Program-made: the position numbers and the translations under genes
In this document: positions 16,883 through 59,497 of the stretch, piece after piece
Numbering within the stretch: position 1 is the stretch's first letter
How the letters are laid out: every line of letters starts with the position of its first letter
Origin: Malania oleifera
Lineage: Eukaryota > Streptophyta > Magnoliopsida > Santalales > Ximeniaceae
Length of the DNA stretch: 64,000 nt
Reading direction: 5' to 3'
NCBI RefSeq assembly: GCF_029873635.1
Contig: NC_080419.1
Location: forward strand, 77,054,597 to 77,118,596
The notes under the pieces: model-generated
Told to the model about the DNA's origin: nothing
Database searches by the model: none
What the model saw: the letters and a program-made list of their open reading frames with translations, nothing else

Positions 16883-17520
16883 GTTATGCATTTGTTATTG
16901 TTAATGATTACTCTAGATTCACATAGGTTATATTTCTAGCATATAAGGATGAAACATGTGAGAGACTTGTAAAATTGTGTACGAAAATACAGAATGAAAA
17001 GGGCTATACAATCACACATATCCGTAGCGATAGAGGAAGAGAATTTCAAAATAAGGATATGGAAAAATTTTGTGATTTACATGGCATATCTCATAACATT
17101 TTCTACACCTAGGACTCCATAACAAAATGGAGTAGTTCAAAGAAAGAATAAATCCCTACAGGAAATGGGTAAACTATGTTAAATGAGCACAATCTTCCTA
17201 AATATTTCTGAGCTAAAGCGGTAAGCACCGCTTGCTATGTCATGACTAGAGTATTAATTAGGCTCACTCTTAATAAAACCCCTTGTGAATCATGAAATGG
17301 TCATAGACCTAATATTTACTATTTTCACATGTTTGGGTGTAAATGTTATGTTTTAAGAGATAAAGATAACCTAGGCATGTTTGATGCAAAATCTGATGAA
17401 GGAATATTTTTAGGTTATGCTTTAGATAGTAAAGCCTACAGAGTGTTTAACAATAGAACTTAACTATTATAGAATCCATCCATGCAGTGTTTGATGAGTC
17501 AAATTCTTTCTCTAAAATTT
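16883..17520 (+). pseudogene. Sirevirus D pol: integrase remnant
   Basis: Truncated at its 5' end inside the integrase core: 'YAFVIVNDYSRFT', stop, 'VIFLAYKDETCERLVKLCTK', 'THIRSDRGREFQNKDMEKF', then after a frameshift 'QNGVVQRKN'-like sequence with a stop, and 'HMFGCKCYVLRD', 'GMFDAKSDEGIFLGYALDSK'. Glu in the QNGV-E motif appears as Gln. Gag, protease, primer site and 5' LTR are missing, lost at the junction near 16883. The 3' continuation of this element is LTR H far to the right. Confidence 0.85.
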
Positions 17521-17769
17521 TTGATATGATCTAGAGATTAGAAAAGGGTTAGAAAAATTGTTTATTGAAAATAATGATGAAAAGAGCACTGAAATTAAAG
17601 AAACATCTATTGAGGACAACCAGATAGAGAGTGAGGTTCATTAGCTACCTAAGGAGTGGAAATTTTTGAAGAATCACACCAAAGATCAAATTATTGGTGA
17701 ACCTTTACATGGAGTAGCCATTGTTCATCCTTTAGAAACATGTGTAGTCACATGACATTCTTGTCTCAG

Positions 17770-18560
17770 GAAGGGCCTTAGAATGTGAATGAGGCCACAA
17801 AGGATGAATCTTGGGTGATGTCTATGAGTGAAGAGCTAAACCAGTTTGAGAGAAATAAGGTTTGGACCTTGGTTCCTAGACTGGATGATCATACTATCAT
17901 TGGAACCAAATGGGTCTATAGGAACAAGAAGGATGAATATGGGATTGTAATTTGGAACGAAGCCATATTAGTAACCCAGGGATACAACCAGGAGGAAGGA
18001 ATAGACTTTGAAGAAACATATGCTTTTGTGGCTAGAATGGAATCCATTTGTATGTTAATAGCCTATGCATCTTTTAAGGACTTCAAGTTATATCAAAAGG
18101 ACATTAAAAGTGCATTCTTAAATGGCTACATAAATAAGGAGGTATATGTTGAGCAACCTCTAGGTTTTGAAACAACAATTGACCAAATCATGTATTTTAA
18201 TTGTCTAAATCATTGTATAGCCTAAAGCAAGCTCTTAGAGATTTGTATGAAAGGTTTAGTGGTTTCCTCTTTGATCAGGAGTTCACTAGAGGTAAAATTG
18301 ACACAACTCTCTTTATAAATTCTACAAATGAAGATATGCTCCTAATGCAAATATGTGTAAATGATATCATCTTTGGAGCAACTAACTAAGAGATGTGCAA
18401 TGAGTTCGCCACATGCATGCAAGATGGATTTGAGATGAGCATCATGGGAGAACTTACTTTCTCTCTAGGAATTCAAATAAAACAAACTAAAAATGGAAAA
18501 TTTGTTTGCCAATCAAAATATGTAAAGACCGACTCAAGAAATTCAATATGGAAAATGACA
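17770..18560 (+). pseudogene. Sirevirus D pol: reverse transcriptase
   Basis: RVT_2 domain: 'ESWVMSMSEELNQFERNKVW', 'HTIIGTKWVYRNKKDEYG', 'TQGYNQEEGIDFEETYAFVA', 'DIKSAFLNGYINKEVYVEQP', then a frameshift near 18215 and 'LYSLKQALRDLYERFSGFL'. The palm motif reads 'ICVNDIIFGAT' where the family has YVDD, so one catalytic Asp is replaced by Asn. 'IMGELTFSLGIQIKQ' follows after a stop. Confidence 0.9.
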
Positions 18561-19290
18561 AAATTTTAGGAACACCTATGAGTACTTCCACTAAATTAGA
18601 CAAAGATGATCAAGGTATACAGGTAGATGTTAAGTTCTACTGAGGTATGACTGGTACTCTACTATACCTGACTGCTAGCAGACTAGACATCATGTTTAGT
18701 TTATGTATGTGTGGGAGATTTCAAGCTACACCAAAAAAGTCACACCTACTAGCAGTTAAGAGGATACTTAGATACCTCATTGGGATCATTGATTTAGGCT
18801 TATGGTACCCTAAGTATACCTTTTTTGAGATTGTCAACTATTTCAATGCTAACTTTGCCGGTAGCAAAGGTGAACAGAAAAGCACGAGTGGTACATGTCA
18901 TTTCTTAGGACAATATCTGGTTTCTTGGTTTTCCAAGAAACAAAACTCAATTGCACCGTCCACAGCCGAGGCTAAATATATAGCAATTGGAAGTTGTTGT
19001 GCTCAAACGCTTTATATGAAACAACAACTTATGGACTATAAATTGCACTACATTACTGTTCCCATAAAATGTGATAACACTAGTGCAATAAATATTTCAA
19101 AGAATCCCATTTCATACTCACGAACTAAGCTTATTGAGATTAGGCATCACTTCATTTGTGATTATTTGCAAAAGGGGGACGTAGCACTTGAGTTTGTATG
19201 CACTGATAAACAATGCGCCAATATATTTTATGAAACCACTTCAAGAGGATAGACTTATCCAAATTAGATGTGAATTAGGGTTATTGTACA
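18561..19290 (+). pseudogene. Sirevirus D pol: RNase H
   Basis: Open from 18647 to 19252: 'MTGTLLYLTASRLDIMFSLC', 'RILRYLIGIIDLGLWYPK', 'FNANFAGSKGEQKSTSGTCH', 'STAEAKYIAIGSCCAQTLY' and 'IKCDNTSAINISKNPISYS'. The second RNase H motif has Lys in place of the usual Glu (AEAKY). A frameshift at 19230 separates the tail 'PLQEDRLIQIRCELGLLYT'. The domain order integrase-RT-RNase H confirms Ty1/copia. Confidence 0.9.
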
Positions 19291-19697
19291 CTAGGGAAGT
19301 TGCCTAGAACTACTTAAGTAATCATATGAGGAATCAAGCCTATCTCATGATGATGAGTAGGGTGCATAACTGAGAAGGAGCATATCTCTTTGTAATTTCA
19401 TGGTTTCGAAAATTAAATACTCTAACAATCTTATCTTGTTTTATGCTTATATGTTTTTGTGAGAACAACACTACAACTTACTATCCATAATACACTAAAT
19501 GCTTAAATTTTTTTTATGGATGGTGATTTTTTGTTAATCTGGTATAATGAACTATTATTGGTAATACTGAATGAATTGATACTATCTGCATGGTCGATGC
19601 AAAATGCATGATGATAGTTGATTAGGAGATTTGCATGCCATTATAACTAAATGCCAACCGCATGGTTGATGCAGACATTATGAATGCATACTACTAG
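19291..19697 (+). other. Sirevirus D 3' region before the LINE
   Basis: Downstream of pol, no ORF. It contains short repeats of GCATGGTTGATGCA/GCATGGTCGATGCA type (about 19590 and 19660). By position it is the start of the untranslated 3' part of the D/H element, which resumes near 38548. Confidence 0.5.
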
Positions 19698-20249
19698 TTT
19701 TTTTTTTTTTTCTTTTTTTAGAAATGACCGAAAGCCACCCACATAGCGGCCCCATCCCAAATTTATTAATGAATCTCACTTATGGCAGAGCAAAATCGTG
19801 TTATAAGCAAAGCCTCTAGGAGATTACAAATAAACACAAAAAAAACTCTCCCAAAAACTAACCACAAACCAAAAAAAAACAAAAAAACAAAAAAACCAAA
19901 TCTAAACAAACCTAACCAAACGGCCAAAACTAAGTTTGCCTAAATCAAACAGCCAAGCAAACTACACAACCTAACATCTAATGCTAGGGAATCTAAGACT
20001 ATCAAGTCTCAATATGCCTCTAAGCTTCTTCAAAAGTTCATCCCCTTCCTAAAAACTATATATCATACCTTCTTCACCTTGATGAGCAAGATAATATGCC
20101 GCTTGATTAGTCTCTCTATAAATGTGTGGAATAAAGAATCGGAGACCTTTAAGCTCCAAAGCAATCTTGTCCTAAAAATCCCATAAATACCATATTGTGC
20201 ATTCATCATTATTGATCCAATCAACAATCAGCTTAGAGTCACATTCAAT

Positions 20250-20520
20250 AATAATACTATAAAAGCTCAGATCCTTACATAACAACACCCCCATGTGCAA
20301 AGCATGAAACTCAGCTTCATTATTCGTACCTTGTCCAAAATAAGAAGAAAAGCACCTTTAAGATAGCCATAGGAATCCTGAATGGTGCCTCCACCCTCAC
20401 ACAAACCCACATTACCTCTACAACTTCCATCAACATTCAACTTCACAAAACCCATTGATGGTTTCTCCCAAACAACCATTCGCTGTCTTCTAAGATTACG
20501 AGGCACTAATCGAGGTATAT
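20250..20520 (-). pseudogene. LINE RNase H (RVT_3-like)
   Basis: 'PSMGFVKLNVDGSCRGNVG' with 'GGGTIQDSYGYLKGAF' is the N-terminus of the plant RVT_3-type RNase H found at the C-terminal end of some plant L1 elements. The catalytic Asp of 'NVDGS' is present. The rest of the domain (aHxAE and later blocks) is frameshifted: 'HALHMGVLLCKD' can be read around 20275-20300 and 'IVEC DSKLIVDWI'-like residues around 20215-20260. Confidence 0.82.
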
Positions 20521-20699
20521 CAAATAAATCAAACCCCTCGGACCCGAATTGTAAAATAGAATGCTTATCAAAATGCGCCTAGTCCAAAAACAAATGGATC
20601 TCCAAACCCCCTCCTTAGACTCCACCGTATTTTCCATCCTAACTTTGCACAAAAATTGCCAAAGATGCCAAGTGATTGTAGAGGGAATTAGCCCAATAA

Positions 20700-21082
20700 T
20701 AATGCCATGTTGAGACATTTTTTATTTTTTCTAAATAAAACCAATGAAGGACATGCCCCCACCATGTTCCCGCAATGAATTTCAGCAAGCCCAAAATACA
20801 AACAACTCTATCCCAAACAAAAGAAGCTACCTCCCCTGCACTCAAAACATGATCAAGCGTTTCAATCTTCCTATTAATACAATAGTCACATCTTGATGCA
20901 AGATAAATACCACAATGTTGGAGGCTTATATCCACTGACATACAATTGAACCAAGCCTTCAACCTACACACTGAAATTTTTTTTGGGAGAAAATTATGCC
21001 ATATCCACTCCATACCTGGGTAATTGTCTTGCTTTAATTTGGTAATTTCCCAAGTACCAGATGATGAAAAACTTCCATCCAA
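20700..21082 (-). pseudogene. LINE zf-RVT domain
   Basis: 'WIWHNFLPKKISVCRLKAWF', 'CDYCINRKIETLDHVLSAGE' and 'VASFVWDRV' form the zinc-binding zf-RVT segment located between RT and RNase H in plant LINEs (Cys-x2-Cys then His, with the family's last Cys replaced by Ala-Gly). The ORF continues to 20639 out of frame with the RNase H. Confidence 0.82.
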
Positions 21083-21389
21083 AGTTCGCTTCCATATTAG
21101 AACATCTAGACCCTATTTCTTAATAGGCAATGGGAGCAAAATGTCACCCAACATAATAGGACAAATAAGATATTGCATTAGCTCATAATTCAACCCATTA
21201 TGATCCCTGCAATCCCTCACCTAGATAAGAGGATAAGAGATGTCCTCCACCCTTAAACAAAGAGGCCCTAAATTCAGCTAGCGATTGAACCAAAAGGAGA
21301 CTCGTCCATCATGAACTCTCCAAATGGTGTTGCCACAGACAACTAGCAAAACCTGCATTAAGGACTTCAAAAACCTCGAACAACCTGAA

Positions 21390-22245
21390 TAATTTCTAGC
21401 AAGAGCAAGATGACACTTTTTTAACATATTTAGCTTTAAAAAATCTCATCCATAAATGATCCATTTTCAACAAATGCCAAACAAACTTCATATGAAGAAA
21501 TCTTTGCACCGCCATAAAATCTCTAATTCCCAAACCTCCTTCCAACTTGGGAATGCATAATTTCTTCCAAGCCCGCCATTTACACTTAAACTTTCCATTT
21601 TCCTCTCCCCAAAAGAATGAGGATAAAATAGAGTTTACCTTCTTCAAGGTAGAACAAGGTACATCAAGTACAGCCAACAAGTGAATTGGCATAGATGACT
21701 ATACATGTTTCAACCGAATTAATCGACCACCTTGCGACAAAATCTTAAGCTCCCAACCTGCCACCTTTGATTGAATTTTATTAACCAAAGGTTTCAAAAT
21801 TCTTGCTTTAAGTCGACTAGGCACAAGCGAGATGCCCAAGTATGTTGTAGGAAAGGATCCTTCAAGAAGACTTGAGGTCCTCCTAATCTCATGATGCATT
21901 GATATATTAAGGAGCTTATAAAAATACACAGCAGATTTCTCCATACTAATATGCTGTCCCGACCAATTTTAATACACCTCAAGAGTGTTCAACAAGTTTT
22001 GAAATGACCTTGCATATCTATCAGAAAAAATCAATAAATCATGTGTATAAAGAAGATGTGAAACAATAGGAGCACCGGCAAGATGGAAATATCTACCAAT
22101 CTTGCACGACCTAAAATTATGATGCAGCAACCTGGACAAGACTTCTGCCATCAAAATAAAAAAGGTAAGGCGAGAGAGGATCCCCTTGATGCAATCCCCT
22201 TGTTGGTTTAAAAAAACCTTTGAATGAGCCATTTAGCATAACATT
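21390..22245 (-). pseudogene. LINE reverse transcriptase, C-terminal part
   Basis: Starting at the CACTA boundary and reading minus: 'INVMLNGSFKGFF', 'PTRGLHQGDPLS', 'LMAEVLSRLL', 'VSHLLYTHDLLIFSD' where the family palm motif F/YADD reads YTHD, then 'FPTTYLGISLVPSRL', 'GWELKILSQGGRLIRLKHV' and 'FFWGEENGKFKCKWRAWKKL'. At least three frames are used. The upstream part of the same domain is at 38182-38542. Confidence 0.88.
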
Positions 22246-22250
22246 AATAC
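22246..22250. repeat. AATAC direct repeat flanking the CACTA insert, left
   Basis: AATAC occurs on both sides of the insert (again at 38177-38181). Counting it once restores LINE coding sequence. CACTA elements normally duplicate three bases, so part of AATAC may belong to the element. Confidence 0.6.
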
Positions 22251-22257
22251 AAAAAAT

Positions 22258-22655
22258 CAGGGTATTAGTAAAGGATCAAATTCGTCACTAATACTAGTGA
22301 AGGATCAAATTTGTCACTAATACTAATACATTCGTCACTAATAGTATTAGTGACGAATTTATTAGTATTAGTGACGGTTTTAAAATAGTTGCTATATCTA
22401 CTGTTACTACTAACTATTAGTGACGAAGTCTAAATTCGTCACTAATAATGGAGTATTTGTGACGGATTATAACTGTCACTAAAATCTTAACACCGTCACT
22501 ATAAATTCTACATCGGTTCAGCTCAAATTCGTCACTAATAGTAGGGTATTAGTGACGAATCTAAAAACCGTCACTAATACTCCACTATTAGTGACAAATT
22601 TTAATCCTTCACTAATACTTTATTATTAGTGACGAATTTGAATCCTTCACTAATA
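22258..22655. repeat. CACTA left subterminal repeat array
   Basis: About 400 bases of alternating TATTAGTGACGAATTT and AAATTCGTCACTAATA units, giving many short palindromes. Shorter and less regular than the right array. Probable transposase-binding region by analogy with En/Spm TNPA sites. Confidence 0.88.
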
Positions 22656-23909
22656 ATAATTTAAAAAATTAAAAAAAACCTTTAATACTAATTTTTTTAA
22701 TCATCAATTCCTATAAAAATATGTAATTACATTTTCACATGCATAACCGGAAACCATATTTACTACAAAATTCGTAAATCATTCAAAATTTCTAATTCAA
22801 ATACAAATTCAATTAAAATAAAGAAATAATCAGATAACAAAAAAAATTTCAAAATATTCAAAATTCAAATACAAATACTAGTACAAATTCAAATTAAAAT
22901 ACAAAAATTCCATTTGTTCAAACAACAATATAAATTACAAAGAAATAATAAAAAAATTGCATCAGACGACTATAATGCATGCATGCATGGCATCGTGCTA
23001 ATGTTATGACAGCCGTGAACCCTACAAATTAAGAGTCATAAAAAAAAAAAAATATTAGTATGCAAATGGAGAGCTGACACTTAGTATAATAAGGAAAAAA
23101 AATTATATGATATAACAAATTCGCAAAGATTTCATAATCATACATATTACACAATTTGTATGGTAGTAATATTAATAATGAAAAAATATGTCAGTATTTA
23201 AAGCTAAACACTTAGTTCACATATTTCCATTAAGTTTCACACTTGAAAGTTAATTTTGTGCTACACTAATATTATCTCTATTATATTAATATAAGCATAA
23301 AATCGAAGTTGAGAAGATAACTTAGTAAAGTAGAACATGAGACTTATTTCTTTTAGTACTTAATATAAATACTCTCAATCACAAGATTATAAATTGAATA
23401 TTGATAATTATGGAGAGAAAAAAAATGTGTCCATGTTATGTTTGTCTTATAAGGGTGAACAATCTTGATTCACATGAATAGAAGCATGGAGACAAACATG
23501 ACAATGCTTGGTAGAAAATGGGTATACTAAAGGTGACCATGTTTAAGATATTTGAATGCAATTTACCACATGTCATTTAAATATTCTCAATTATAAGTAT
23601 ATGAATATCCATAGGTAGACTGACGCTTCATAGTTGTGTTGTATATATAAGCTTCTAAAGGTCGGGTCGACACTATGCAATGTGTTTCTATTCTCTTAAG
23701 AAACTTAAACATGTATGAATTGGGTTTAGTAATTTGAGTATGGCAGAAGATGGAGCACGACATGCATATGATCTTTCACTCCGAGGGATTGTTTGGAACC
23801 ATCTAAGAAAAATATGGGACTAAAAAAAGTGTTATATTTTATGAGTGCTAAAAGTAAGTGTTAGCTACAAAATTGTTGAAACTCACTAGTACTATTTGAT
23901 TTTCTAAAA
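22656..23909. other. CACTA 3' side, noncoding
   Basis: AT-rich DNA without ORFs. It contains AAATTCAAATACAAAT-like imperfect repeats at about 22790-22920 and a GCATGCATGCATGG block near 22978. No recognised feature. Confidence 0.5.
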
Positions 23910-24385
23910 ATAAATTTTGTTGATTAATATGATTCAACATTATTATTTTCTTATCAACAAAAACGTATTACAATAGATAATAAAATAGTATATGATCATT
24001 AATTTATGTTAATAATAATATTACTATTGAATTAAAAATTTTAATTAATTATTTTCTAATTTTAATATAATCCATCATTATTGTCTTCCAATTAACAATA
24101 ATGCATTACAATACATAATACAATAATATTATTATAATTTCAATGTTAATTATATTATTATTAATTTAATTAATAGTTTTAATTACCATTATCGAATTAC
24201 CATAATTCGTCATTATAGAATGTTAGTTAACAAGAATATATCACAAAGCATATAATAAGTAAACAATTTTAATTAGCTAATATAATTCAGCATTATTATT
24301 TTCTCATTAATACTAATATAATACATTATAAAATGATATATAATTATTTATTTTAATAATAATATTACTAAATTTCTATTATGCA
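23910..24385. repeat. AT-rich tandem repeat, about four degenerate units
   Basis: The phrase TTAATATnATTCAnCATTATTnTTTTCT recurs near 23925, 24062, 24198 (degraded) and 24277, each followed by AnAATnnATTACAATA-like and TTAATAATAATATTACTA-like blocks. Spacing is about 137, 135 and 80 bases. No coding potential. Confidence 0.65.
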
Positions 24386-25266
24386 TGAACAATATTTGCT
24401 TTTAGGTCACAAAAAGTAATGTTACTTTACTTCTCAAAATCCACTTAAAAATTATTCTTTTTTGGTAAAATATTTTAATAAGTACTTTCTTTGGGAACAT
24501 GCTAAACAACATTCCTTATACAAGCACTAATTTAAGTCATAAGTACCATAAGCACTAATTTTAAGTAGTAGCAAATAGTATCTTCACTAAGAGTAAATAT
24601 CCTATGATTCTTTGCTTTGCAAAATCAATTTAATAGGTGTTTTTTTGTGAACATGTCAAACAACACTTTTGCACAAGTACTATGTTAAGCCATAAGTACC
24701 ATACATACTTTTTTAGGGCTACCAAAGTAATGAAAGGAAATATCCTAAACTTCTATATCCCTTTTTAAGATACGAGTCAAAGAAATCCTTCACCAAGGTG
24801 AAACAGTGATCGAAAAATGAATTATAATCCCATTTAAAAAGTCATACTTATTATAGTTAGACATAAAAATAGAAAGAAATTTCTTTTGGTTCAATTTATT
24901 TACATCATTTAACAAAGGGACCATATGGTAACTTGAATAGGATAGTTTTCCTTGCAATAGGTATCCCCTCGTGAATAAACAATGTTGTGTGTGTGTGTGC
25001 GCGCGTGTGTGTATAGGAGAGACATGTGATAATAGGATGGTTTTAGAGAAGTAGATAGAGAATTTTCAAACCTAGCTAGGAGACTTCATCACCTAATCCC
25101 TACTTTCGTTTGTTCCCTCCAACTTGGGTTTTCTAGCCATGCAGGTTGCAGCTAGCTAGCGCAATGCGTTGATGTTGTCCTTTTCTTTAAAGTTTCTGTA
25201 ATTTGATTCCTAACTACTTATTAAGAATTAGATGCTCACTACAAGATGATGCTCACTGTAGGTCAT
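24386..25266. other. CACTA internal noncoding with short duplications
   Basis: Contains two versions of a 'CAAGTACTATGTTAAGCCATAAGTACC' theme (split in the family; near 24514 and 24665), the second repeated almost exactly at 28268. A (TG)n tract also lies here. No ORF of interest. Confidence 0.5.
24986..25012. repeat. (TG)n/(CG)n microsatellite
   Basis: Alternating TG run interrupted by GCGCGC, 27 bases, purine-pyrimidine alternating throughout. Confidence 0.9.
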
Positions 25267-25808
25267 CTTTTCTAATTTTCAAATCCTTAGCTAAGTGTTT
25301 TTAAGATTTTCAATGATTTAGGCTCGGCAATAAATGCTTTAGGCTTACCTAACCAAAAATATAAAAATGAATGCTTCTTTAAATGAACTAAGCCTACATT
25401 GCCTCCTTTCTTATGATACCTAACTTTCACTCATCATTTCAAAAATATTTTAACATTTATTTTATCATAATTATCATTGTACATGATTTTTTTTGTGAAA
25501 ATTTTAACGAAATTTCAGCAACATGTCGTCTATAAATTGGACATTTTCCCATAAAACATGTACTTGATAGGTTCAAATAAGTCATTTATAATTCAGTTCA
25601 AGGCACACGAGAACCTATATCCGCTACCAGCATGGAATACACATCAACTGCATCCACTATGCAGGAGGCATTCTAGACTAGCATGCAATTAGGTAGTAAT
25701 CAACAAATCACAATATATAATCTATCCATTAAATTAAGAATATAAATAGCAGAGAACAATGGATAGTATTGAGTTCAGTGTAGTATTGTTATTTATCTAA
25801 GCATATGG
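25267..25808. repeat. CACTA internal direct repeat, copy 1
   Basis: About 540 bases beginning TTTCTAATTTTCAAATCCTT and ending GCATATGG. Repeated at 25899-26441 with the same order of landmarks (AGGCTCGGCAAT, CAACATGTCGTCT, CACGAGAACCTATAT, CATGCAGGAGGCATTCTAG, ATAAATAGCAGAGAA). A more diverged third copy lies at 34466-34880. Confidence 0.88.
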
Positions 25809-25898
25809 ACATGAATGTTATGAGATGATGAGAGCATTTAATATAAAGAATTATAAAGGTGATGCTCCCTCTGAGTTATGTATATATTCAACTTATGT

Positions 25899-26441
25899 CT
25901 TTTTCTAATTTTCAAATCCTTAGCCAAGTGTTTTTTAATACTTTCAATGATTTAGGCTCGGCAATGAATGCTTTAGGATTACCGAACCAAAAATATATAA
26001 ATGAATGCTTAAATGAACCAAGCCTACATTGCCTCATTTCTTATAATTCCTAACTTTCACTCATCCTTTTAAAAATATTTTAACATTCATTTAATCATAA
26101 TTATCATTGTACATGGTTTTTTTTTTTGGAAAAAGCTTAACGAAATTTCGACAACATGTCGTCTGTAAGTTGGACATTTTCCTAAAAAACATATACCTTA
26201 TAGGTTCAAATAAGTCATTTATAATTCAGTTCAAGGCACACGAGAACCTATATTCACTACCAGCATGCAATACACATTAACTGCATCTGCCATGCAGGAG
26301 GCATTCTAGACTAACATGCAATGAGGTAGCAATCAACAAATCACAATATATAATCTATCCATTAAATTAAGAATATAAATAGCAGAGAATAATGGATAGT
26401 ATTGAGTTCAGTATAGTATTTTTATTCATCTATGCATATGG
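25899..26441. repeat. CACTA internal direct repeat, copy 2
   Basis: Same orientation as copy 1 and separated from its end by about 90 bases. It differs by scattered substitutions and small indels, for example a nine-T run against eight T in the same place. Confidence 0.88.
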
Positions 26442-26890
26442 AATATGGTGAGCCACCACAAGGTCAGTACACATCCTTATTCAAATAAAGATTTCAATAC
26501 TTAACACATGTTGTCTTACATGTATGCATGATCATAAGGTGCATGAACACACTCTTTATTCAAAACAATATGCATGAACACACTCTTAATTTTAGGCAAT
26601 TTATTCATCTAAAGTGACCATCACATGACATTAAAATAACATACATTTACACTTTTTCTTTCCAAATATAGCATGTTATCCCAACTAAGTGCACATTTTA
26701 TCTCAACAAGTGCCAAATTCCAGCTTTCCTAACCACCGCTTAATGCATAAATGCCAACAAGTCAAGCTATCATCCATACAAGATGAATATCTATCATATG
26801 AAAATTTCCTAACTAAACAAGATATACAACTATGATAACAAAAAAAAAAACATGTATGCATTATGCAACCATATCAAGTAATTAAAGATA
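26442..26890. other. CACTA internal noncoding
   Basis: AT-rich, with a short ATGCATGAnCACACTCTT repeat at about 26540-26592. No feature recognised. Confidence 0.45.
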
Positions 26891-27087
26891 ACAACATCCA
26901 AAAGTAGGATGGATCCATAAGGAGGATGAATTTAGAAGGAGGACACATCCAAAATGAAGACGCATTCAAAAGGAAGTCGCATCCAAAATGAAGATGCATC
27001 GACAAGCAGGATGCATCCAAAAGGAGGTTGAATCTGCAGAAAGGATGCATAGGCACATCCACAAGGATGATGCATCCAAAAAGTGCA
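26891..27087. repeat. 17-bp minisatellite in CACTA
   Basis: Tandem units of GATGCATCCAAAAGGAG-like sequence with starts at 26908, 26925, 26942, 26959, 26976, 26993, 27010 and 27027, all 17 bases apart, then less regular units. The open frames across it are a by-product of the repeat. Confidence 0.9.
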
Positions 27088-28267
27088 ACATTGATGGAGC
27101 TTTCTGAAACAACAAAGATCAAAAAATAATATTATTCGATGAAAAAATATTAATTATAAGCTTGAATTTAAAATATATGCATCATGTCATTGAATTGGTG
27201 AAATTGTAATTCAATATGGGCAAGGTGTTCGATAAGTAAAGCAATTTCAAAGAACCCAAAACCTAAAGCAGCCATTTATTTATTGTCAAAAGTCTCAATG
27301 TTTTTTTTGAAACATAAAATCTTGCAAAATCAAGTTTATTTTTTTGAAACACTAAAAAATTTCATCTAATTCAAGCTATCATTTTCAATGAAATTCTTTG
27401 AATATGTTAAATTTACATATACATTATTGAAGCTTCTATACAATTGGAAGATATCAAACATGACATTTACTATATTGAGTTTTAACGTCAAAGAGCATTT
27501 CTACTCAAAATTCCCATTTTTATGAAATATTGTCTCATATTCAAAATTTTGATTGAAATTTTGATAAGTTTCACTAATGCTTCAAGATTTTGATAAAATT
27601 TGATGATCTGTGGACATCTCGATGACAATTTTGTAAGACATAATTGGCCTTTTTTGTTTGATGATGGTGAAAACTGGAAACTATAGTAGAAATTTTGACT
27701 TGTTGAAATTTAAAACCATATTTATACATGGTTCTATTTTGGATAAATTACTTCCATCCCTTTTGGCTATAATTCTATATCTGTCCTATGATTTTGAAAA
27801 CTATAACTCCCAAACTCTGTTGCAAGCAATGCAAAAACATCCAAAATGGATTCAAAATTTGAAAATTACTAAGTGGCACCATTCATACTGAACTATTCAG
27901 GAGTCAATATGCTTATCATATAAGGATAAATGCGTTTGTTATCATTTATAGCTCATATTCAGTCATATGTATCATATTAGTCAAAGACACACCTGGCCTT
28001 ATTCTCTTACCATGTGCTACATTTAGTTTACAAGTTGACTCTTAAATTGGCTTGTATTGGAATATATATTAGATGGGGTATTATGGCACCTAGAATCAAG
28101 TTAGTTAGTTTGTTTTTATCATTGTCAACTTGAGATTTAAAATGTGAATTGAAATCCCAATTTTGAGAATCAAGAATTAAGTCTTAAAGATTTAGTACAA
28201 GTTTCAAAAATTGATTCCAAATTAGATGCATATATTGCTATACATAAAACAAACAAAATCATAAAAT
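27088..28267. other. CACTA internal noncoding, downstream of tnpA remnant
   Basis: AT-rich, rich in AAATTTTGAT-like words. It could include the 3' untranslated part of the tnpA-like gene. Nothing specific is seen. Confidence 0.4.
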
Positions 28268-28317
28268 ACTTTTGCACAAGTACTATGTTAAATCATAAGT
28301 ACCATACATACCTTCTA

Positions 28318-44130: not shown

Positions 44131-44179
44131 GTTGCCTACATAAAGGAATTGCCAAAAGAATAATTAAAACAGGCTAATA

Positions 44180-47276: not shown

Positions 47277-47278
47277 AT

Positions 47279-47290
47279 TGGTATCCGGGT
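47279..47290 (+). other. Primer-binding site of J
   Basis: TGGTATCCGGGT two bases after the LTR. Only TGGTATC agrees with the tRNA-Met complement used by A, B and G. Confidence 0.7.
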
Positions 47291-47329
47291 GGGATTATAA
47301 CAAATCCTAACAAGTAGTTATAAAAAGAT

Positions 47330-49217: not shown

Positions 49218-50276
49218 AAGGTCTTAAAAATCTCAAAGTGTTTATTGAAACACATAAAAAAAAATATTAAATAACATTGTTGGCCAAAATCATAGAATGA
49301 TTCATACAAGCTTAAAATAGAGAGTTTTAAAATTTGGAAAGAAAATTCATATGAAAGCAAAAATAAGCATATTACATGAAAGTTTTGATAAGAAACATTT
49401 TAAGAATGAGATACTTGTGTTAATTTGCTATATATACTACATGTGTAATCATGACTTGACTCATATTAATAATGTACGGTTCATTATATTGCAAACTTAA
49501 GCATGATTATGAAGCTAAATCTTGATATAAGAAGTATAGAGTTTGAGCATTAGATTATTGAGCATGAGCATGAATCTTGATATAAAATTAATTTTTGACT
49601 ATGCATGCTAATAATGAATCAAGTGGAAAAATTTGTCTTGTGTTGCTCTTTATATTGGTATCCAAAGGGTCAATTGGTATCACAAATTGATATTTAAGAA
49701 TGATAAGCATAATTAAACTCATGAGCATGTTATGATATTGATGATAACATTATATTGGTATTTGACGAGTGTGTTCACGAGAAATACAAGATATGAATCA
49801 ATATATGAAGCATGGATAATAAACTTAAAAGTATAATTGGTATCAAATCTGAATGTATTAAATTCAAGGGGAGTATTATGACTTATTGCTTGTATCATGT
49901 TTCTTCCCTAATTATTAAATTGGAATCATGGAATAAATAATTGGTATCATGAATTATTATGCATGCTGAAGTTTAAAGAACTAGACTTTTTATTGTTGCT
50001 CATAGCCTTAGTATTTAAAGTCTAACTCTTTTTGATCGATGTCAAAAAGGGAAGAAGTTTTAGGTAGCAAAAATCAAGCATAATATTAAAAATTGGAAGC
50101 TTATTGAAATGATATATCAAAAGGAGGAGAAGTACTTGATTTTGATATATGAACATGATAGTAAAAGAGTTTTTGAAATTGATCATGATATTGTCAAGTT
50201 TGTCAATATGATGCTTATTGAAAGGGGGAGCCTTTTTAAGGCTTACTCAAATTTTTGCACCTTGTTTGTCATCATC
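49218..50276 (+). other. Element J 3' noncoding region
   Basis: Replaces pol. Rich in repeated ATTGGTATCnnn words and TGAATCTTGATATnAnAn-like phrases (49480-49990). It carries purine tracts near 50045, 50119-50130 and 50221-50232, each followed by a pyrimidine-rich run. Confidence 0.75.
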
Positions 50277-50290
50277 AAAAAGGGGGAGAT
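50277..50290 (+). other. Polypurine tract of J
   Basis: AAAAAGGGGGAGAT immediately before the 3' LTR, identical to that of B. Confidence 0.93.
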
Positions 50291-52585
50291 TGTTGTCCTT
50301 ACAAGGCTTAAAATCTTGTTTTTTTTTTTTTGATACTAACAAACAAGTGGAATTTAACGTATTTGTGTGAGTAATGCTATCTTAGGGCTCATATATGAGA
50401 AAGTAAGGTCAAAGTGCTCACAAGGATCAAATGAAGCTTAAAAGAGTCAAAGCATGGATTTAAAGATGATATTTTTAATCTTGAAGAATATGAGGAAATG
50501 GATGATAAGCCAAAGAAAATTTAGAAGTCAAAAGAGTAAAAGAAAAGCAAAGAGAAAGAGCTCAAAGAAAGACAAAGTATGAAGACTCAAGAAACCTAGA
50601 ATGTGAAAAGTCTTGAAGTCTTTATGTAAGTACTTTAATGTTTAAATATCGTTTGAAATATTATGAAGCTTTTAAGTTAACTTCTTGGACCTAAATACCT
50701 TTTAACATTTTTGGAAAATATTTTTATAAGGTCAAAAATTGTTTCAAAAAGTTTAGATTCATTTTTGGAATGAAAAACACCAAAAATAGGATTTCCCAAT
50801 TATTGTAATTTTTCATACATCCGCATTGAGGTGCAATTTTATCTATCCAAAACTCTTTTTTTTTAAAAATGTTCAATATTAAAGTTGTAGGATTTTCATT
50901 TAGATTTCGTTTGACACCAAGAAAACCAAATTTGGAGTTGTATAGAAAAAGTGATGACTAAAATACTGAAGTAGGGTCGAAGTTGTTAGCCAACTGAACA
51001 CTGTTCACGGCGGAACATCAGAAGACTAAACCGGACACTTCGGTTGTCTGACCCTTAAACCTCGGTCATCTAAAAAATATCTTAAGTTGACTGAAGATTA
51101 AGTTCAGTCATCCGAGGATTTTGCTAAATTTTTTTTACAGAGGCAGAACACCTTAGATGACTGAACTCAAAAGTTCAGACATCTAAACACTATTAACAAG
51201 CATATTTTTCAAAAATTTTACTTTTTAAATATTAGTTGCTTGGGCTCCAAACTTTCTAAAAACTTGAGAAATACTCCAAATAAACTTGGGCAACAAGAAA
51301 ACCCTTTTGAATGCGTATAAATACATTGTTTTGCAAATCAAAATACACCATGAATTGAAAAATCCGTTTGAGAAGCTGAAAGCACTCTTGTTCTTACAAA
51401 GTTCTCTAGTTCACTCATTGCAAAACTCTTTTGCTGAGATATTTTGAAGTTATGATCCTTCCTTCTCTAAATTCCTACTACTAATCCTCATATAAGAAGG
51501 ATATTGGTGAATTCTACACTTGAGCTTCATTCTATTTCATATTGATATTTCTACATTGAAGTATATAGTGTTTTAATTGTATTAACATGCCCTTTGTGAG
51601 AGTATATTTGTACGTAGATTATATCTTCTTTCGTGTAGTTCTATTACTTTCCAAGGATTGTTTGGATCGTTGGCTAAGCAAGGGGATATTGCGAAGAGAG
51701 GTGGGTTCTAGCCTATTTGAAGGAGTGACCGAACGAGGGGACATCGTTTGGAAAGGCAGGCTCTAGCCTACTGAAGGAGTGTGTAAAGGTATTGTTCTTC
51801 CTATTAAAGGAACATGTTTAGTGAATCTTTTGGTGTTTTACCAAAGGCGAGGATGTAGGCTGGGTATAAGCCGAACCTCGTAAAAATCTTGTCTCACTCT
51901 CTCTTTCCCTTACTCTCTTTATTTTTAGTACATATACAATTGCGTGGATGTTTTAAATATCTGAATAATATACACTACATAAATTAGATATTAAATAAAC
52001 TAAAAGCTTAATTTTCTTTTGGGCTTACGGAATCTGAAAGAGAGTACGTTAGTTGATCAATCTTTTGCGGAGATTGTATAGTAGTACGTTGATTGATTCA
52101 ACACCCCAAGATTCTTTAACTTAAAGTTTTTTTAAAGCCTATGTATTTGGAAAGAGTGATTGGATGTTGTATTGAATATCAAATTAAAAGACAAATTTCA
52201 TATATACAGGGCTTGATTCAAATTGATTTACACAGTGCTGACAACAAAAGCTATATTGTGATTGAATGGTTTAAAGTTTGATATTGAGTGGATATTTTTT
52301 ATATTCCAAATAGTGCTGAATCTTACAAATCTAAATAGTGCTATAGTTAACTTGTACTTGGCAAATTGTTTGGTTGTTTGATTTCAAATTGTGGTTGATT
52401 GATTACTTGAAAGATTGAATAGTTGTGTGGTTGTGGATTAAAAAACCTAACTTCTTGTGTGATTCGTAAATCAATCAAATAGGATAAGAATTAGTTAAAA
52501 GAAATAAAAAGAAGTCTTTAAAGGAATTAAAAGAAATTGTTAAAATCCAATTCACCCCCCTATTGGGACTACACCTTGCTTTTCA
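50291..52585 (+). repeat. 3' LTR of J
   Basis: TGTTGTCCTTACAAGGC to CACCTTGCTTTTCA. Same features as the 5' LTR, with TATAAATA at 51316-51323 and the C-tract motif at 52547-52564. Confidence 0.93.
51316..51323 (+). promoter_or_regulatory. TATA box in 3' LTR of J
   Basis: TATAAATA. Confidence 0.55.
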
Positions 52586-52590
52586 GGCAA
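52586..52590. repeat. Target-site duplication of J, right
   Basis: GGCAA, the partner of 44995-44999; the G coding sequence continues from here. Confidence 0.95.
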
Positions 52591-53190
52591 GCTACTATTG
52601 ACGCTTTGTAGATGGTTTCTCTAGATTATCGTGTCCACTAGCTCGACTCGGGAGGGAAAATGTGAAGTTTTATTGGACCAATCATTGTGAGTAGAGCTTC
52701 CAAGAGTTAAACCTATGGTTGGTTTCAGCACTAGTACTGGCTATTCCATCAGGGGAGGATGAATTTGTGATATATAGTGATGCATCTTTAAAGGGACTCA
52801 GACGTGTGTTAATGCAGTATGGAAGAGTCATCGCCTACGCATCTAGACAACTTAAAGAATATGAAAAAGAACTACTTTGTGCACAATATAGAATTAGCAA
52901 CAGTGGTGTATTCTTTGAAAATCTAGAGGCATTATCTTTATGATGGGAAATGCAAGACTTTCACTAATTATAAAAACTTTAAGTAATTCTTCATGTATAA
53001 AGATTTGAATATGTGGCAGATAATATGGTTGGGGCTCATCAAGGACTATGATTGTACTATCAGCTACCACCCAAGGAAAGCAAATGTGGTGGCTGATGCA
53101 TTGAGCTAGAAAACGGCAGAAGCAACGGTGTCAGTAGTGGTGGTTGAGCACCCTATTCGGATGGATTTGGAGAGGCTAGGCATGGAGTTG
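52591..53190 (+). pseudogene. Chromovirus G RNase H
   Basis: Gypsy-type RNase H after the J insertion. 'FVIYSDASLKGLRRVLMQYG' with 'RVIAYASRQLKEYEKE' is the open block at 52719-52943; the first catalytic Asp (YSDAS) is present. After that the frame shifts, and 'HPRKANVVADALS' near 53070-53105 is the usual end of the domain. Broken by solo LTR I at 53190. Confidence 0.87.
53186..53190. repeat. Target-site duplication of solo LTR I, left
   Basis: AGTTG. The right-hand copy AGCTG (55240-55244) differs by one transition. Confidence 0.75.
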
Positions 53191-55239
53191 TGTTGACCCC
53201 ATAGGTCACACCCAGTTTTCATAATGACAAATACTCTTGGTATTTAACGTTTGCCAAGTTTGTGTGCAGGACCATATTAGGAAAATCAAATTGATGGCAC
53301 ATGGAAGTAAAGCATGAAGACCCTCAAGACTTTAATTTCTATTGTCAAATTAATGATGGTAATATGGGTCTGTAATAGTAACTAGGTATATGGTCTGTAA
53401 TAATCTCTGCATGTCATGCATGTAGGTTCTTGTAAACTCAAAAATGCCATAGACTAACCATAGAGACCAAATGACCTTACGGTCGACCGACGTTAGGTTT
53501 TTGGGCGTACTTGAAAAGACCCTAGGTCCCTACACTTAGTGCACATTGTTCCCACGAACACATATTTTATCTGGGGAATTAATTGAAGTAAAATTGGGCA
53601 AAATTGCAAAAATATGTGAGAGGTCAAGCGATCGAACCCCAGGAGGTCAAAACTCCTCGGGCGCTCGAACTGTTGGAAAGTCAGCAGTTTGACCAGACTT
53701 TAGGCGACCGAACCTGTATTAACCCTATCTTCCCTGGTCGACTGAACCCATGTCAAAATACTTTTCACCAACCCAGGCGCTCGAACCTTCGCATTCAAAA
53801 AGCCTTCAGCCGACCGAATTGCATGTTTCGGTTAACCGAATGTAGCATCGGGCACCCGAACCGCGCACCAATGGCTGCTGACTTTGATTGAGCCACTCGA
53901 GCATAATTTCGGGCACCTGGACCCTTTAATAATTATTTTGTCACTAAGTCTGTTTGGGCGATCAAACCTCGGCGGGTTAAAATTAATTTAACTGTGGTAA
54001 AATCGGATTAAGTTGGGTTAAGTGTGTTTAAACATTTTGAATCTTCTCTAATAATTCCAAACCTATCCAAAATGGTTATAATTTTACCCCTGCCTATAAA
54101 TATGGGTTCATTTGTGAGGATTAGTAAGAGATTAGCCAAAATAATTAGCAAAAATCCTCTCTATCTCAAAACCTCATTTTGCCCAAAATACTCTCAAATA
54201 TTTATTCCCTTGATATATCTTGATATTGTGAGAGTTTATTGAGTGGTCTTGTGTTTATTAAATAGTTCTAATACTCCCATTCGATTGGTTGATTGTCATA
54301 TTATTTTTGGGGAGTTTTGCTTAGTTTTATCCCACAGATTTCAATATTATAAATCTTGTGTTAGGATAAACTAGCAAGCTTAGGATATTTGCATTGTCGT
54401 TGCAAGTATCCCATAGCTTTGATTTTTTTGTGCAAAATATTTTTCTACGAGCTAAAATATTTTCAAACTACTCTTGTGCTCATTACGTTGAAGGAAAATA
54501 TTTTGAGCTAGTTTGAATACTTGATTAACTTCTTTGAAACCTTGATTTGCTATTGAGATTTCGTTTAGCTTGTTTCAAAGATACAACTTGTTTAGAACAC
54601 TCTTGAGCATACTCGCGATCATATATTGTTGAGTGTAGCTTGCAAGAAAATACACATCACTGAGCTTACATTTACCTACATTGTTGATGCATATGTGATT
54701 GCGCGTATTGGGTACATATCAGCTTTACATGAAAGCATAATCACTGTACCATTTGAGTGAAAATACTGTTGTATTTCCAGGTGTGGCCTGAGCGGTTTTG
54801 ATCTAGCCCAGAAGGATCAGGTTAGGGTCAGCCCTGTGAATTTGACCTAGGGCCTTCTCCGCCCTGCAAGGAGAGTTTGTAAAGGTTGAGGTCAGCCCTG
54901 TACTAATTGACCTGGTTGTATTAGGTGCTGCTCCACTTGTTAAATGAGCCATTAGTGGAATCCTCGAACTTGCGAGCTAGAAGTGGAGACGTAAGCACAG
55001 TTGGCCGAACCCGGATAACATATCATGTGTCTGTTTATATTTTCGCACTTTATATTTACTGCACGTGTATGTTATTGTGTAAATGATGCACATGATTTAA
55101 ATTCTGCATATTATACTTACTTGTGCATTTGGGTAAATAGACATAGGTTGTGAATGTATTGCTGCTATTTAGGTCAAACATAGGAAAAAAGTTTTAAATT
55201 CTAATTCACCCCCCTCTTGGGAATACACCAAATTTAACA
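53191..55239 (+). repeat. Solo LTR I, Sirevirus type
   Basis: A single 2049-base LTR with TGTTGACCCC...AATTTAACA ends, near-identical 5-base flanks and no internal region: the product of LTR-LTR recombination. It holds at least ten GGCGACCGAAC/GGTCGACTGAAC-like repeats at 53624-53962, a TATAAATA box and the AATTCACCCCCCTCTTGGGA motif near its end. LTR L belongs to the same family. Confidence 0.9.
54095..54102 (+). promoter_or_regulatory. TATA box in solo LTR I
   Basis: TATAAATA, about 130 bases after the last U3 repeat. Confidence 0.55.
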
Positions 55240-55244
55240 AGCTG
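55240..55244. repeat. Target-site duplication of solo LTR I, right
   Basis: AGCTG, one base different from AGTTG at 53186. Confidence 0.75.
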
Positions 55245-56550
55245 ATAGAGGGTGATCACCAAGCACTTATTGCCAACCTAGTGTTAAAACCTACATTGCA
55301 AAAGAGGACTAAAACTGCCTATAGAACTGATCTAGAGTTAGCAAAGTTGATAGAGAAAGTGCAAGACGGGCATGAGGAGGAGTTCAGCATATCAGATGAT
55401 GGAGCTCTGCGGTTCCGTACTAGATTATGTGGCCCTAGAGATGTTGAGATCAGAAGGATTATCTTAGAGGAGGCACACAGATCTTTATATACCATACATC
55501 CAAGTAGTACTAAAATGTATCAGAATCTACAAGAATCCTTCTGGTGGAGGGTATGAAGAAGGAGATTGCTGAATTCGTAAAGCAATGCTTGATGTGCTAG
55601 TAGATAAAGGCTGAACACCAAAAACCCATAGGGCAGTTCTAGCCACTCTACATTCCTAAGTGGAAATGAGATAACGTCTCTATGGATTTTGTGACAGGGC
55701 TACCACCAGCGTGACAAGGGCAAAATGCTATTTAGGTGGTAATAGATCAATTGATGAAGGACACTCACTTTATCGCTACTAAAGTCAACTATACTATGGA
55801 CAGGCTAGTAGAGTTTACATTCAGGAGATAGTTCACTCTCACGGAGTGCCGGTATCCATAATTTCAAACCGTGACCCCCAATTTACTTCATGATTTGGGA
55901 AGAGTTTTTAGGAGGTCGTGGGGTCACAATTAGCATTCATCACAATTTTTCATCCTCAGACTAATGGGTAGACCAAGAAGGCAATCCAAATACTTGAAGA
56001 TATGCTGCAAGCTTGTGTACTAGATTTTGGGGGTAGTTGGACCCAATATCTACTACTGGTTGAGTTCGCATATAATAATGGCCATTAGGCCAGCATTGAC
56101 ATGACACTATATGAGGTGTTATATGATAGGAGGTGTCATTCTCCACTATACTAGGATGAAGTGGGTGAGAGGCAAGTTCTAGGACCATAATTGGTGCAGC
56201 ACGCATACGATAAAGTCCGACTAATTAAAGATAGAATTAGTGCAAGTCAGAGTCGATAGAAAAGCTACGCAGAAACTTGCCACCGAGATTTAGAGTTTGA
56301 TGTGGGAGATCACGTATTTTTTAGAGTAGTTCCACTGAGAGGAATTATGAGATTTGGAAAGAAGGGTAAGCTGAGCCCTAGGTACATTGGCCCATTCGAG
56401 ATACTTGAGAGAGTGGGGTCATTTGCCTACAAGCTAACTCTACCACCAGCCCTATCTAGAAATCACTATGTATTTCATGTTTCTATATTGAGAAAATATG
56501 TCCCAGACCCATCCCACGTGATCAGTTATGTAGAGATAACTGGCATATGA
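55245..56550 (+). pseudogene. Chromovirus G integrase
   Basis: Zinc-binding N-terminus 'EEAHRSLYTIHPSSTKMYQN' with 'FWWRV' and, after a shift, 'KQCLMC'. The catalytic core begins 'SMDFVTGLPPA'; 'IISNRDPQFTS' holds the second Asp. The motif with the catalytic Glu (family QTER) reads 'TNG' stop 'TKKAIQILEDMLQA', so Glu is Lys. The C-terminal part 'GDHVFFRVVPLRGIMRFGKK' and 'LSPRYIGPFEILERVGSFAY' to 'FHVSILRKYVPDPSHVI' is open over 82 codons (56302-56550). Confidence 0.9.
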
Positions 56551-56725
56551 GGAAGCACCAGTGCAGATCTTAGATAGGAAGGAACAAGAATTTCACACCA
56601 AAAAAATTCAGTTAGTGAAAGTTTTGTGGAGAAATCATGCCAGGGAAGAAGTTTCGTGGGAGTTTGAAGAAGATATCAGATAGAAGTACCCACATTTATT
56701 TAATGGGTTACAGTATAAGTTAGTA
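56551..56725 (+). pseudogene. Chromodomain at the integrase C-terminus of G
   Basis: 'APVQILDRKEQEFHTKKIQL', 'VKVLWRNHAREEVSWEFEED' and, after a stop, 'KYPHLF'. This is the chromodomain that chromoviruses use to target heterochromatin, with the Val-Lys-Val-x-Trp and Trp-Glu motifs present. One base shift separates it from the integrase ORF. Confidence 0.87.
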
Positions 56726-56995
56726 TTGTTTAGATGAAGACAATTTTTATTTATTCAGTATAGAATGATAAATGTATAGTTGTATTTTAGATTATAGGAT
56801 AGGTAGTGTTTCGGTTTTAGGAGAATTTTTATTTCAGGAGTATGTCTGTAATCTCCCAGAATTGTAATTGTAACCACGGTATTCCTCCGCCATAAGTGAG
56901 GGTAAGTAATAAAATAAGTAGCCCATTTTCCTTAAAGGATGGTGTTCGATATATATAGTAAATTTCAAGGACCAAATTTTATAATGAGGGGAGAA
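56726..56995 (+). other. Chromovirus G 3' untranslated region and purine tract
   Basis: Noncoding, ending in AATGAGGGGAGAA directly before the LTR, the polypurine tract. Confidence 0.75.
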
Positions 56996-59255
56996 TGTAG
57001 TAACCTTTCTAAATATAGAAATTAAATAATAAAGAAAGGAGGAAGAAAATGAAAATTTAAGGGGACTCAATAGGGTTTCGTTGACGAATGCTCCACACTC
57101 GTCGATGAATCGCCTTCTTGGGCTTGTTGATGTGGACGTGTGTCTCATCAATGAGAACTTATCGAGAGGTATGTTTTCAGGGTATGAAACTCATTGATAA
57201 GGGTTAAGTGCTCATCAATGAACCTCTTTCATGGACTCGTCGACAGGGTGACGTGGCTCGTCGACGAGGCCACGTGGACAAGCATTCTATATAAGGCCAA
57301 AAATCATTTTTTTCTTGTGAGAGAAACACAAGCAAAGCTCCTTTAATCTCTAGAATTTGCCATCCTCCTCTTCTATTTTCAATTTTCATCTCATTCTTTG
57401 CCGGTTCGATGATCGGAAGCCACCACGCTACTCTTGCTAAGTTTTTCGTCAAGTCAGTTAGAGTAGTTTGTTGGTTTGGCCAACTTGGACACCATCCCAA
57501 AATTTTGGTAAGTAGATTATTTTGGTATTTTCAGTATTAGCAGGTTTATTTGAGTTCAAATTTTATATTATGTGAGAGTATATCGGTGTTTTGTGGAGTA
57601 AAATTAGGGTGTTATGTTTTCAGGGTTAGGGTATTTTTCGGACCCTGCAAGCATAGGTTGAGGACCCCAACAGATATTTTCGAGGAGACCAGGTAAATTA
57701 TAGTCGGTAAATTACGAGTATGTAGGTTCAGGGAAATATAGTCGATTTATTAGAAATATGTATTATTTTTGGATTTAGAGAATAGTACGCCATGAGCGTA
57801 AGGATAAGTTGGAGGCGAGCCTCCCAGCTAGTTAGTTATGGGAAATATACTATACAAGTAAATTCAGAAATATTATTAGTAAATTATAGTATTTTTTTTA
57901 TTAAGGTACGTGACATAAGTTATACAGTTTTATAGATTTCAGAACATGAGTTTTATTAATTGTATAGCCTGAGTAGGTATTTGTTAAGTACATAATTTAT
58001 ATAGTTTTTCAGAATATCATGATTTACAGTATATATAGAGACAGATATATTTTACAGACAAATATTTTACAAATATCATACAGACAAGTATTTTACATTA
58101 TTTACAGAATGTCATGCTTTCCAAAACCATAACACTTAGATATTACATGTTATTCAGTTAGATATGACAGTCAAATATTACAGTTATTACAGTTAGATAT
58201 TACAATTATTTTAGTCAAATGTTATAGTTATTTTAGATCAGATTTATGGTGTTATGGTTATTTTGGAAATATAATGAAAATGGTAGGATATTTATAGAAA
58301 TAGTATATACAGTATCAGACCTTGATGAATCAAGTTATGTTCAGTTAGCAGAGCATGGTATCGTTGCTAATAAAGATCAGAGTGCAACCACACATCTTAG
58401 ATAGTGTGTGGATGGTTTCCATTAACCATGCCAGGAGGGATTGCAGAGTCCCCAGAAGACTGGGTTGAGGTGGCCAATTTGAGGAGGTTATTACTTGTTC
58501 CATGCATAGGAGAGGTTGCTGTTTGGCCAGACTAAGGATTGGTAGAGTTATAACTGACTTACCTGGTAGTCCAACCAAGATTAAGTCCTACCTATGGGCC
58601 GCATAACCCAGTCATGAGGGGTTAAATCATGACATATAGTTTTCAAGGGTAAACACCTCAGCTATGTATATGTAAACATATTTACAGAACATTAGCAAAT
58701 ATAGTATGATACTAGAAATATGAAAATGTAGAAAACTCAGATGTTACAGTTATACTTTAAACTCTGATAGATGCAAACTATATTGTATATTAATTTACCA
58801 ACTTTTACAGTTTTAGATACTGTTAGTATAGTATTTACGAAACTCAGTCACCACACACTACTAATAGCATATTTCCTTTTACTGAGCGTTGTCTCATTCC
58901 AGTGATTTAACATTTTTCAGGTGATCTAGCTAGGTGAGTAGATCAGGTTCGCAAATAGAGAGATCTTTTGTGCTACCGAGTTTATAGGGTAAATATATTC
59001 AGGGGATTGTATTTTTTAGTAGATGATACTAGGGTGATGTGTAAATGTGTATGTATGGTTTGGAAACACTGAATTCTAGTATTGTAAATATGGGTGTATG
59101 ACTTTATGATTTCCGTTGTATAGGTGCGTCATTTTGTGTACAGGGATGCCTCAATGCCCATTTGGGGCTTGAGATGTTATAGCGGGTATTACAAGGGTAT
59201 CAAAGTAATTTAAATTATAAAAAATAAAAAATGGTGAAATTTTCGGGTCGTTACA
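56996..59255 (+). repeat. 3' LTR of chromovirus G
   Basis: Full-length LTR, TGTAGTAACC...GGGTCGTTACA. The U3 has at least eight degenerate copies of CTCGTCGACGAG between 57078 and 57268, then a CACGTG G-box (57271-57276) and a TATATAA box. It is followed by CTCAT and the rest of LTR H. Confidence 0.92.
57271..57294 (+). promoter_or_regulatory. G-box and TATA box in 3' LTR of G
   Basis: CACGTG at 57271-57276 and TATATAA at 57288-57294, directly after the CTCGTCGACGAG repeats. A likely core promoter; missing from the truncated 5' LTR. Confidence 0.55.
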
Positions 59256-59497
59256 CTCATTCCCTACACTACTTATTTTTCTGCACTTGTATGTTTATAT
59301 TTTATTTATTGTGATTATTGTATATGTGTTAAATATTTGCACACTTAAACATTTGTAATGTTTGAGATTGCTTGAGGAACCCTAGGTTTGAGACATTCAA
59401 TTTGTGTTTTTCAAAATTTGATATAAACTTTACCTATAATTTTAAAATAACCAATTCACTCCCCCCCCTCCCTCTTGGGATTACACCAAAAATCACA
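59256..59497 (+). repeat. LTR H, second part (3' end)
   Basis: Continuation of LTR H after chromovirus G. It has the usual late-LTR layout: a TTCCCTAC...TTTTTCTGCACTTG block, then CCAATTCACTCCCCCCCC, CCTCTTGGGATTACACC and the terminus AAAAATCACA. A stretch of probably a few tens of bases between 40385 and here is lost. Confidence 0.82.

What the first reader, a model, noticed from the sequence alone, without database searches (positions are those of the whole stretch)
16883..59497. One ancient Sirevirus split over 42 kb by five later insertions
Plus-strand copia pol D (16883-19290), the purine-tract region 38548-39128 and LTR H (39129-40385 plus 59256-59497) have the order and orientation of one element. 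A LINE carrying a CACTA lies between pol and the purine tracts; chromovirus G, carrying J and solo LTR I, lies inside the LTR. This gives a relative time order: D/H, then LINE, then CACTA; and D/H, then G, then J and I. Domain identities are seen. That D and H are one element is inferred from orientation, spacing and lineage.
Basis: partly seen in the sequence, partly recalled or inferred. Interest (0 to 1): 0.75.

Follow-up and report, generated by a model that had tools for sequence, protein, structure and literature searches.

The report
Old plant retrotransposon, nested by others
The pieces do belong to one old, half-lost plant retrotransposon into which five other mobile elements later landed, which is an ordinary sight in large plant genomes.

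Summary
The best evidence comes from copies elsewhere in the same genome, compared piece by piece. In 4 of 4 copies read across the site, sequence matching the left flank of the LINE runs straight into sequence matching its right flank, with no LINE between. This is an empty site, with a decayed 10-bp target duplication in the window (19688-19697 / 38530-38539). One C1 locus holds pieces matching 16885-17109, 18587-19692, 38548-39500 and 40218-40383 in order and near the expected spacing.

J (GGCAA/GGCAA) and solo LTR I (AGTTG/AGCTG) do. The kind is already known; interest is low.

The parts
16885..19279 (+). Sirevirus D: 3' part of pol (end of integrase core, SH3-like domain, RT, RNase H), broken by stops, 5' half absent
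   Evidence: Pfam pieces; homologues; extent against element C; sharp 5' edge
19253..19697 (+). sequence after the first stop of D up to the LINE: end of pol and the part of the linker left of the LINE
   Evidence: matches L041, L042, L043 and (from 19425) L044; 19564-19697 aligns to L040
19688..19697 (+). left copy of the LINE's target-site duplication, ATACTACTAG
   Evidence: at the empty site L043 and L044 read ATGCTGGTAG, L042 ATGCTGGTAA, L041 GTGCTGGTAG
19698..38529 (-). 5'-truncated LINE (poly-T from 19698; zf-RVT 20642-21112; RVT_1 in the frame 38253-38543), split by the CACTA element
   Evidence: absent from the homologous place in L041-L044
22262..38186 (-). CACTA-type DNA transposon inside the LINE; Transpos_assoc 33454-33795, Transposase_21 pieces within 32347-32895; ends approximate, read by eye
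   Evidence: Pfam; LINE frame stops and resumes near these points; subterminal repeats
38530..38539 (+). right copy of the LINE's target-site duplication, ATGATGGTAG
38530..39128 (+). linker, part right of the LINE, with purine tracts (exact octamer 38800-38807; terminal degenerate 39119-39126)
39129..40383 (+). 3' LTR H, first part
   Evidence: start by TG, PPT and inverted repeat; copies of 38548-39500 across the genome; right limit
40384..59255 (+). Ty3 chromovirus-type element G with LTRs about 40385-41954 and 57692-59255 (86.8% identical)
45000..52585 (+). Sirevirus J inside G: LTRs 45000-47276 / 50291-52585 (90.6% over 45003-47276 / 50293-52585), TSD GGCAA 44995-44999 / 52586-52590; gag-like region, no pol seen
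53191..55239 (+). solo Sirevirus-type LTR I inside G, TSD AGTTG 53186-53190 / AGCTG 55240-55244
59256..59497 (+). 3' LTR H, last part, with C-rich stretch near 59458-59479

Best explanation
An ancient Sirevirus (Ty1/copia) inserted here and later lost its 5' LTR, gag, protease and the front of integrase; what remains runs from 16885 to the 3' LTR end at 59497. A LINE inserted by target-primed reverse transcription into its linker, making a roughly 10-bp target duplication, and a CACTA transposon then jumped into the LINE. Independently, chromovirus G inserted into the 3' LTR, with about 40 bp of that LTR lost at the junction, and Sirevirus J and an LTR element now reduced to solo LTR I inserted into G. 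Shown: order, orientation, the empty LINE site in relatives, the TSDs of the LINE (decayed), J and I, and the nesting. Inferred: how the bases at G's edge and the 5' half were lost, and that the LINE used the usual LINE mechanism.
For: The own-genome search with 38548-39500 scored 40 of 6341 candidates and lists 50 matches, the window itself among them. Of the other 49, 30 cover at least 740 of the 953 bases (72-81% identity), 24 of these at least 887 (73-79%). The stretch upstream of the four best was fetched (L041-L044): in 4 of 4, matches to the left flank (up to 19686-19692) and to the right flank (from 38528-38530) end and begin on neighbouring bases, overlapping by 1, 5, 5 and 5 bp, so no LINE is present (alignments). 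The end of pol D is matched directly upstream in L041, L042 and L043. On C1 one strand holds 16885-17109 at 88% (L049), 18587-19692 at 79% (L042), 38548-39500 at 78% and 40218-40383 (L046); from the printed coordinates, 16885 to 18587 is 1702 bp in the window and 1673 on C1, and 38548 to 40218 is 1670 and 1736. L040 on C4 carries D-linker, H-linker and an H-like LTR in order. In a more distant family, D-pol matches at about 75% in 9 of 9 loci (L014, L024-L031), D-linker 3-47 in 8 of 9 (not L024), H-linker 313-358 in 7 of 9 (not L024; L014 not at E 0.001, though it aligns) and the H LTR start 1-56 in 8 of 9 (not L025). LTR distances: G 0.149, J 0.101.
Against: In L044 the left match begins only at 19425; its first 802 bases do not match 18300-19424, so pol is not directly upstream there. 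L041 has about 56 extra bases inside the linker. G has no target duplication in H, and 41 bp (L045), 40 bp (L046, counted in the printed sequence; the alignment itself left 56) and 41 bp (L047) present in relatives are absent; L048, the fourth copy, did not match there. The LINE's two TSD copies agree at only 6 of 10 positions, and before relatives were seen a TSD scan was not significant (312 of 1000 shuffles reached it). The right LINE flank finds its counterpart in L040 under one scoring only (4 of 300 shuffles); under the other its best match lies elsewhere (16 of 300). L040 shows no D-like pol.
Confidence: 0.97

Rival explanations
1. D and H are parts of two different Sireviruses, brought together by recombination between two LINE copies or by chance.
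For: D and H are 19 kb apart and no partner LTR of H was found in the window. The D linker showed no consistent similarity to eight other stretches of Sirevirus linker and LTR in the window: the best was reached by 2 of 200 shuffles under one scoring and 74 of 200 under the other.
Against: 4 of 4 same-genome copies have both flanks directly joined without a LINE, and the LINE is bordered by a decayed duplication of the same 10 bp; L040 has both linker parts too.
Confidence: 0.02
2. H-left and H-tail are two different LTR fragments with G between them, not one LTR split by G.
For: No TSD for G; about 40 bp missing. Of eight other LTRs or LTR pieces compared, only three (J's 5' LTR, K, I) place the two parts 36-39 bp apart once unaligned ends are allowed for; C's 3' LTR places them about 2 bp apart, and in four (J's 3' LTR, M, C's 5' LTR, B) the tail aligned elsewhere.
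Against: In same-family copies L045 and L047 the H-left match ends and the H-tail match begins 41 bp apart on one LTR, and in L046 40 bp by reading; L015 gives 41 and L017 45.
Confidence: 0.05
3. D/H was a pol-less element and pol D is a separate fragment next to it.
For: Relatives with H-like LTRs can lack pol (no D-like pol found in L039 and L040), and L044 has no D-like pol directly upstream of its linker.
Against: Pol and linker are contiguous in the window and in L041, L042 and L043, and on C1 pol lies at the expected distance upstream of the H-type linker.
Confidence: 0.01

Closest known systems
Sirevirus genus of Pseudoviridae (SIRE1-type Ty1/copia elements)
   Same: copia domain order, long LTR, linker with the purine octamer AGGGGGAG, AT/TG attachment site, inverted repeat around the terminal PPT, C-rich stretch near the LTR end (features as described in PMC2829016; abstract and passages seen)
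   Different: only the 3' half remains; one exact octamer left, the terminal one decayed; frame broken
Nested retrotransposon blocks of large plant genomes, as treated by LTRtype, REANNOTATE and similar tools (search listing only)
   Same: elements inside elements, relative dating by nesting and LTR divergence
   Different: nothing of principle; the mixture here is a LINE with a CACTA in the linker and a chromovirus with two Sirevirus-type insertions in the LTR

Membership tests
Sirevirus | copia-type integrase, RT, RNase H order | tested here: met
   Pfam pieces in order; homologues of the last piece
Sirevirus | several AGGGGGAG octamers clustered before the 3' LTR, the terminal one 10 bp from the LTR | tested here: inconclusive
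   one exact octamer at 38800-38807; 39062-39069 one mismatch; the terminal one is in the right place but matches 5 of 8 (read)
Sirevirus | AT/TG attachment site | tested here: met
   39127-39130
Sirevirus | inverted repeat around the PPT/LTR junction | tested here: met
   arms about 39103-39118 and 39155-39171
Sirevirus | C-rich integrase signal near the LTR 3' end | tested here: met
   near 59458-59479, about 20 bp before the end at 59497
Sirevirus | paired LTRs, PBS and gag | tested here: inconclusive
   absent from this remnant, which is cut at 16885; the 5' ends of its relatives were not read beyond the 501 bases of L049
Chromovirus (element G) | chromodomain at the end of integrase | tested here: inconclusive
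   Chromo E 0.0013, 19 bits against a cut-off of 25.1
CACTA | tnp2-type transposase | tested here: met
   PF02992 and PF13963
CACTA | CACTA terminal inverted repeats and 3-bp TSD | tested here: inconclusive
   subterminal repeats present; exact CACTA termini were not found by reading

The most novel reading that the evidence does not exclude
G integrated with a concomitant loss of about 40 bp and no target duplication, an aberrant integration for a chromovirus, rather than losing its flank later.
Probability: 0.2. Interest if true: 0.25.

Novelty: already known. Interest (0 to 1): 0.12.

Why it matters
It is a clean worked case of relative dating by nesting, and shows that an element can be followed across 42 kb of later insertions once same-family copies are compared. 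It changes nothing in what is known of these elements.

Tried and rejected
Searches that gave nothing: viral contigs with the D piece, with a PPT pattern, and with a protein alignment (28 stretches matched a pattern, none a relative by tblastn). A TSD scan of the LINE flanks without relatives was not significant (312 of 1000 shuffles). A phase test for a tandem repeat running across the LINE failed (105 of 480 join points scored as high); it also used a left end two bases too long. A match of about 30 bp between the flanks (19608-19637 / 38530-38558; 1 of 2000 shuffles; 0 of 1086 plus-strand and 1 of 1100 minus-strand window pieces) first looked like part of a TSD of about 90 bp. Its extension was not significant (40 of 500 shuffles, 8 of 104 control starts; 182 of 2000), and I now read it as a repeat of the linker, with a 10-bp TSD instead. 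The eight RVT_2 loci cut showed no match to D or H.

Considered and set aside: an env-like gene in the linker of D/H (none noticed; C has a 174-aa frame without a Pfam match); dating D/H itself (no 5' LTR).
Full report
Setting. The window lies at C3:77054597-77118596 of a genome of 1,494,336,490 bases in 510 contigs; it is plant DNA, judging by the named relatives. It is packed with transposable elements. Self-comparison shows three LTR pairs: C on the minus strand (4139-5881 / 12786-14561), G (40386-41954 / 57693-59255) and J (45000-47276 / 50291-52585).

The pieces of the finding. D carries copia integrase, SH3-like and RT domains in separate broken frames and ends in an RNase H-type stretch with plant copia relatives. 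To its right, poly-T at 19698 opens a minus-strand LINE (zf-RVT; RVT_1). Its frame is interrupted by an element with tnp2 transposase domains and, by reading, resumes near 38190. From 38530 follow a Sirevirus-type linker and LTR H: octamer at 38800, AT/TG at 39127, inverted repeat. The features are those described for Sireviruses in PMC2829016, of which I saw the abstract and passages. That paper gives mean identities between Sireviruses of 34.1% for gag/pol, 4.8% for linkers and 3.9% for LTRs. A relative with a different linker and LTR, such as C of this window, therefore does not refute the link; only a copy of the same family can.

The decisive test. I did not excise the inserts and rejoin the element. 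Instead pieces were compared apart with copies in the same genome. (38548-39500) scored 40 of 6341 candidates and lists 50 matches, the window among them; of the other 49, 30 cover at least 740 of 953 bases (72-81%) and 24 of these at least 887 (73-79%). I fetched the stretch upstream of the four best (L041-L044). In 4 of 4 the matches to the left and right flank of the LINE end and begin on neighbouring bases, overlapping by 1, 5, 5 and 5 bp, and no LINE lies between (alignments). The end of pol D lies directly upstream in L041, L042 and L043; in L044 the match begins only at 19425. At the site itself L043 and L044 read ATGCTGGTAG, L042 ATGCTGGTAA and L041 GTGCTGGTAG, where the window has ATACTACTAG to the left of the LINE and ATGATGGTAG to its right: a decayed 10-bp target duplication. 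On C1 one locus holds matches to 16885-17109 (199 of 224 aligned bases identical), 18587-19697 (915 of 1076), 38530-38616 (74 of 86) and 40218-40383 (136 of 163) in order on one strand.

Independent support. L040 on C4 has matches to D-linker 218-423, H-linker 309-357 and 434-581 and an H-like LTR in order on one strand. The stretch 19564-19697 aligns to it with a score reached by 0 of 300 shuffles, or by 2 of 300 under the stricter scoring, where the match ends at 19675; 19608-19697 alone aligned best in another register. The right flank found the homologous place under one scoring only. In a more distant family D-pol matches at about 75% in 9 of 9 loci (L014, L024-L031), with D-linker 3-47 in 8, H-linker 313-358 in 7 and the LTR start in 8. 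The next family out (pol about 68%: L011, L021, L032-L035) matches the H linker only near its terminal PPT, in 4 of 6 loci (not L011, L033), and the LTR start in none.

The other insertions. J has identical 5-bp duplications GGCAA, and I has AGTTG/AGCTG; by reading, G's coding sequence can be followed across both. G splits H: in L045 and L047 the two H parts match one LTR 41 bp apart, in L046 40 bp by reading; L048 had no such match. The window lacks these bases and shows no duplication for G. L015 and L017 give 41 and 45 bp. More distant LTRs of the window are divided: J's 5' LTR, K and I give 36-39 bp, C's 3' LTR about 2, and in four others the tail aligned elsewhere. Kimura distances between LTRs are G 0.149, J 0.101 and C 0.113, consistent with G before J. 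The end of H at 59497 is confirmed by three copies.

What is missing. The match of D stops at 16885 against L049, although L049 has 277 more bases on that side; C and L021 show the same limit and L036 16886. To the left lie a filler that resembles L028 853-951 and a Ty3-type gag remnant (PF03732). So this is the 3' half of an element.

Verdict. It is a common kind of structure.

Noticed in passing
14902-16873: Remnant of a Ty3-type element (Retrotrans_gag) and, at 16776-16873, a filler that matches L028 853-951 at 72%, directly abutting the cut 5' edge of D.
   Followed up: partly
45000-52585 and L039 about 1116-4110 (minus): Sirevirus-type elements with about 3 kb between LTRs and no pol found; gag-like region in J. 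Possibly pol-less, non-autonomous families.
   Followed up: partly
3022-4138, about 60531-62005, about 62005-63995: Further Sirevirus-type LTR pieces: B (minus), K (plus) and M (minus).
   Followed up: no
37079-37873: Array of about 7 copies of a 112-115 bp unit near the right end of the CACTA element.
   Followed up: no
40384-40386: The left edge of G's LTR lacks a clear TG start, which would fit a loss of bases at this junction.
   Followed up: partly
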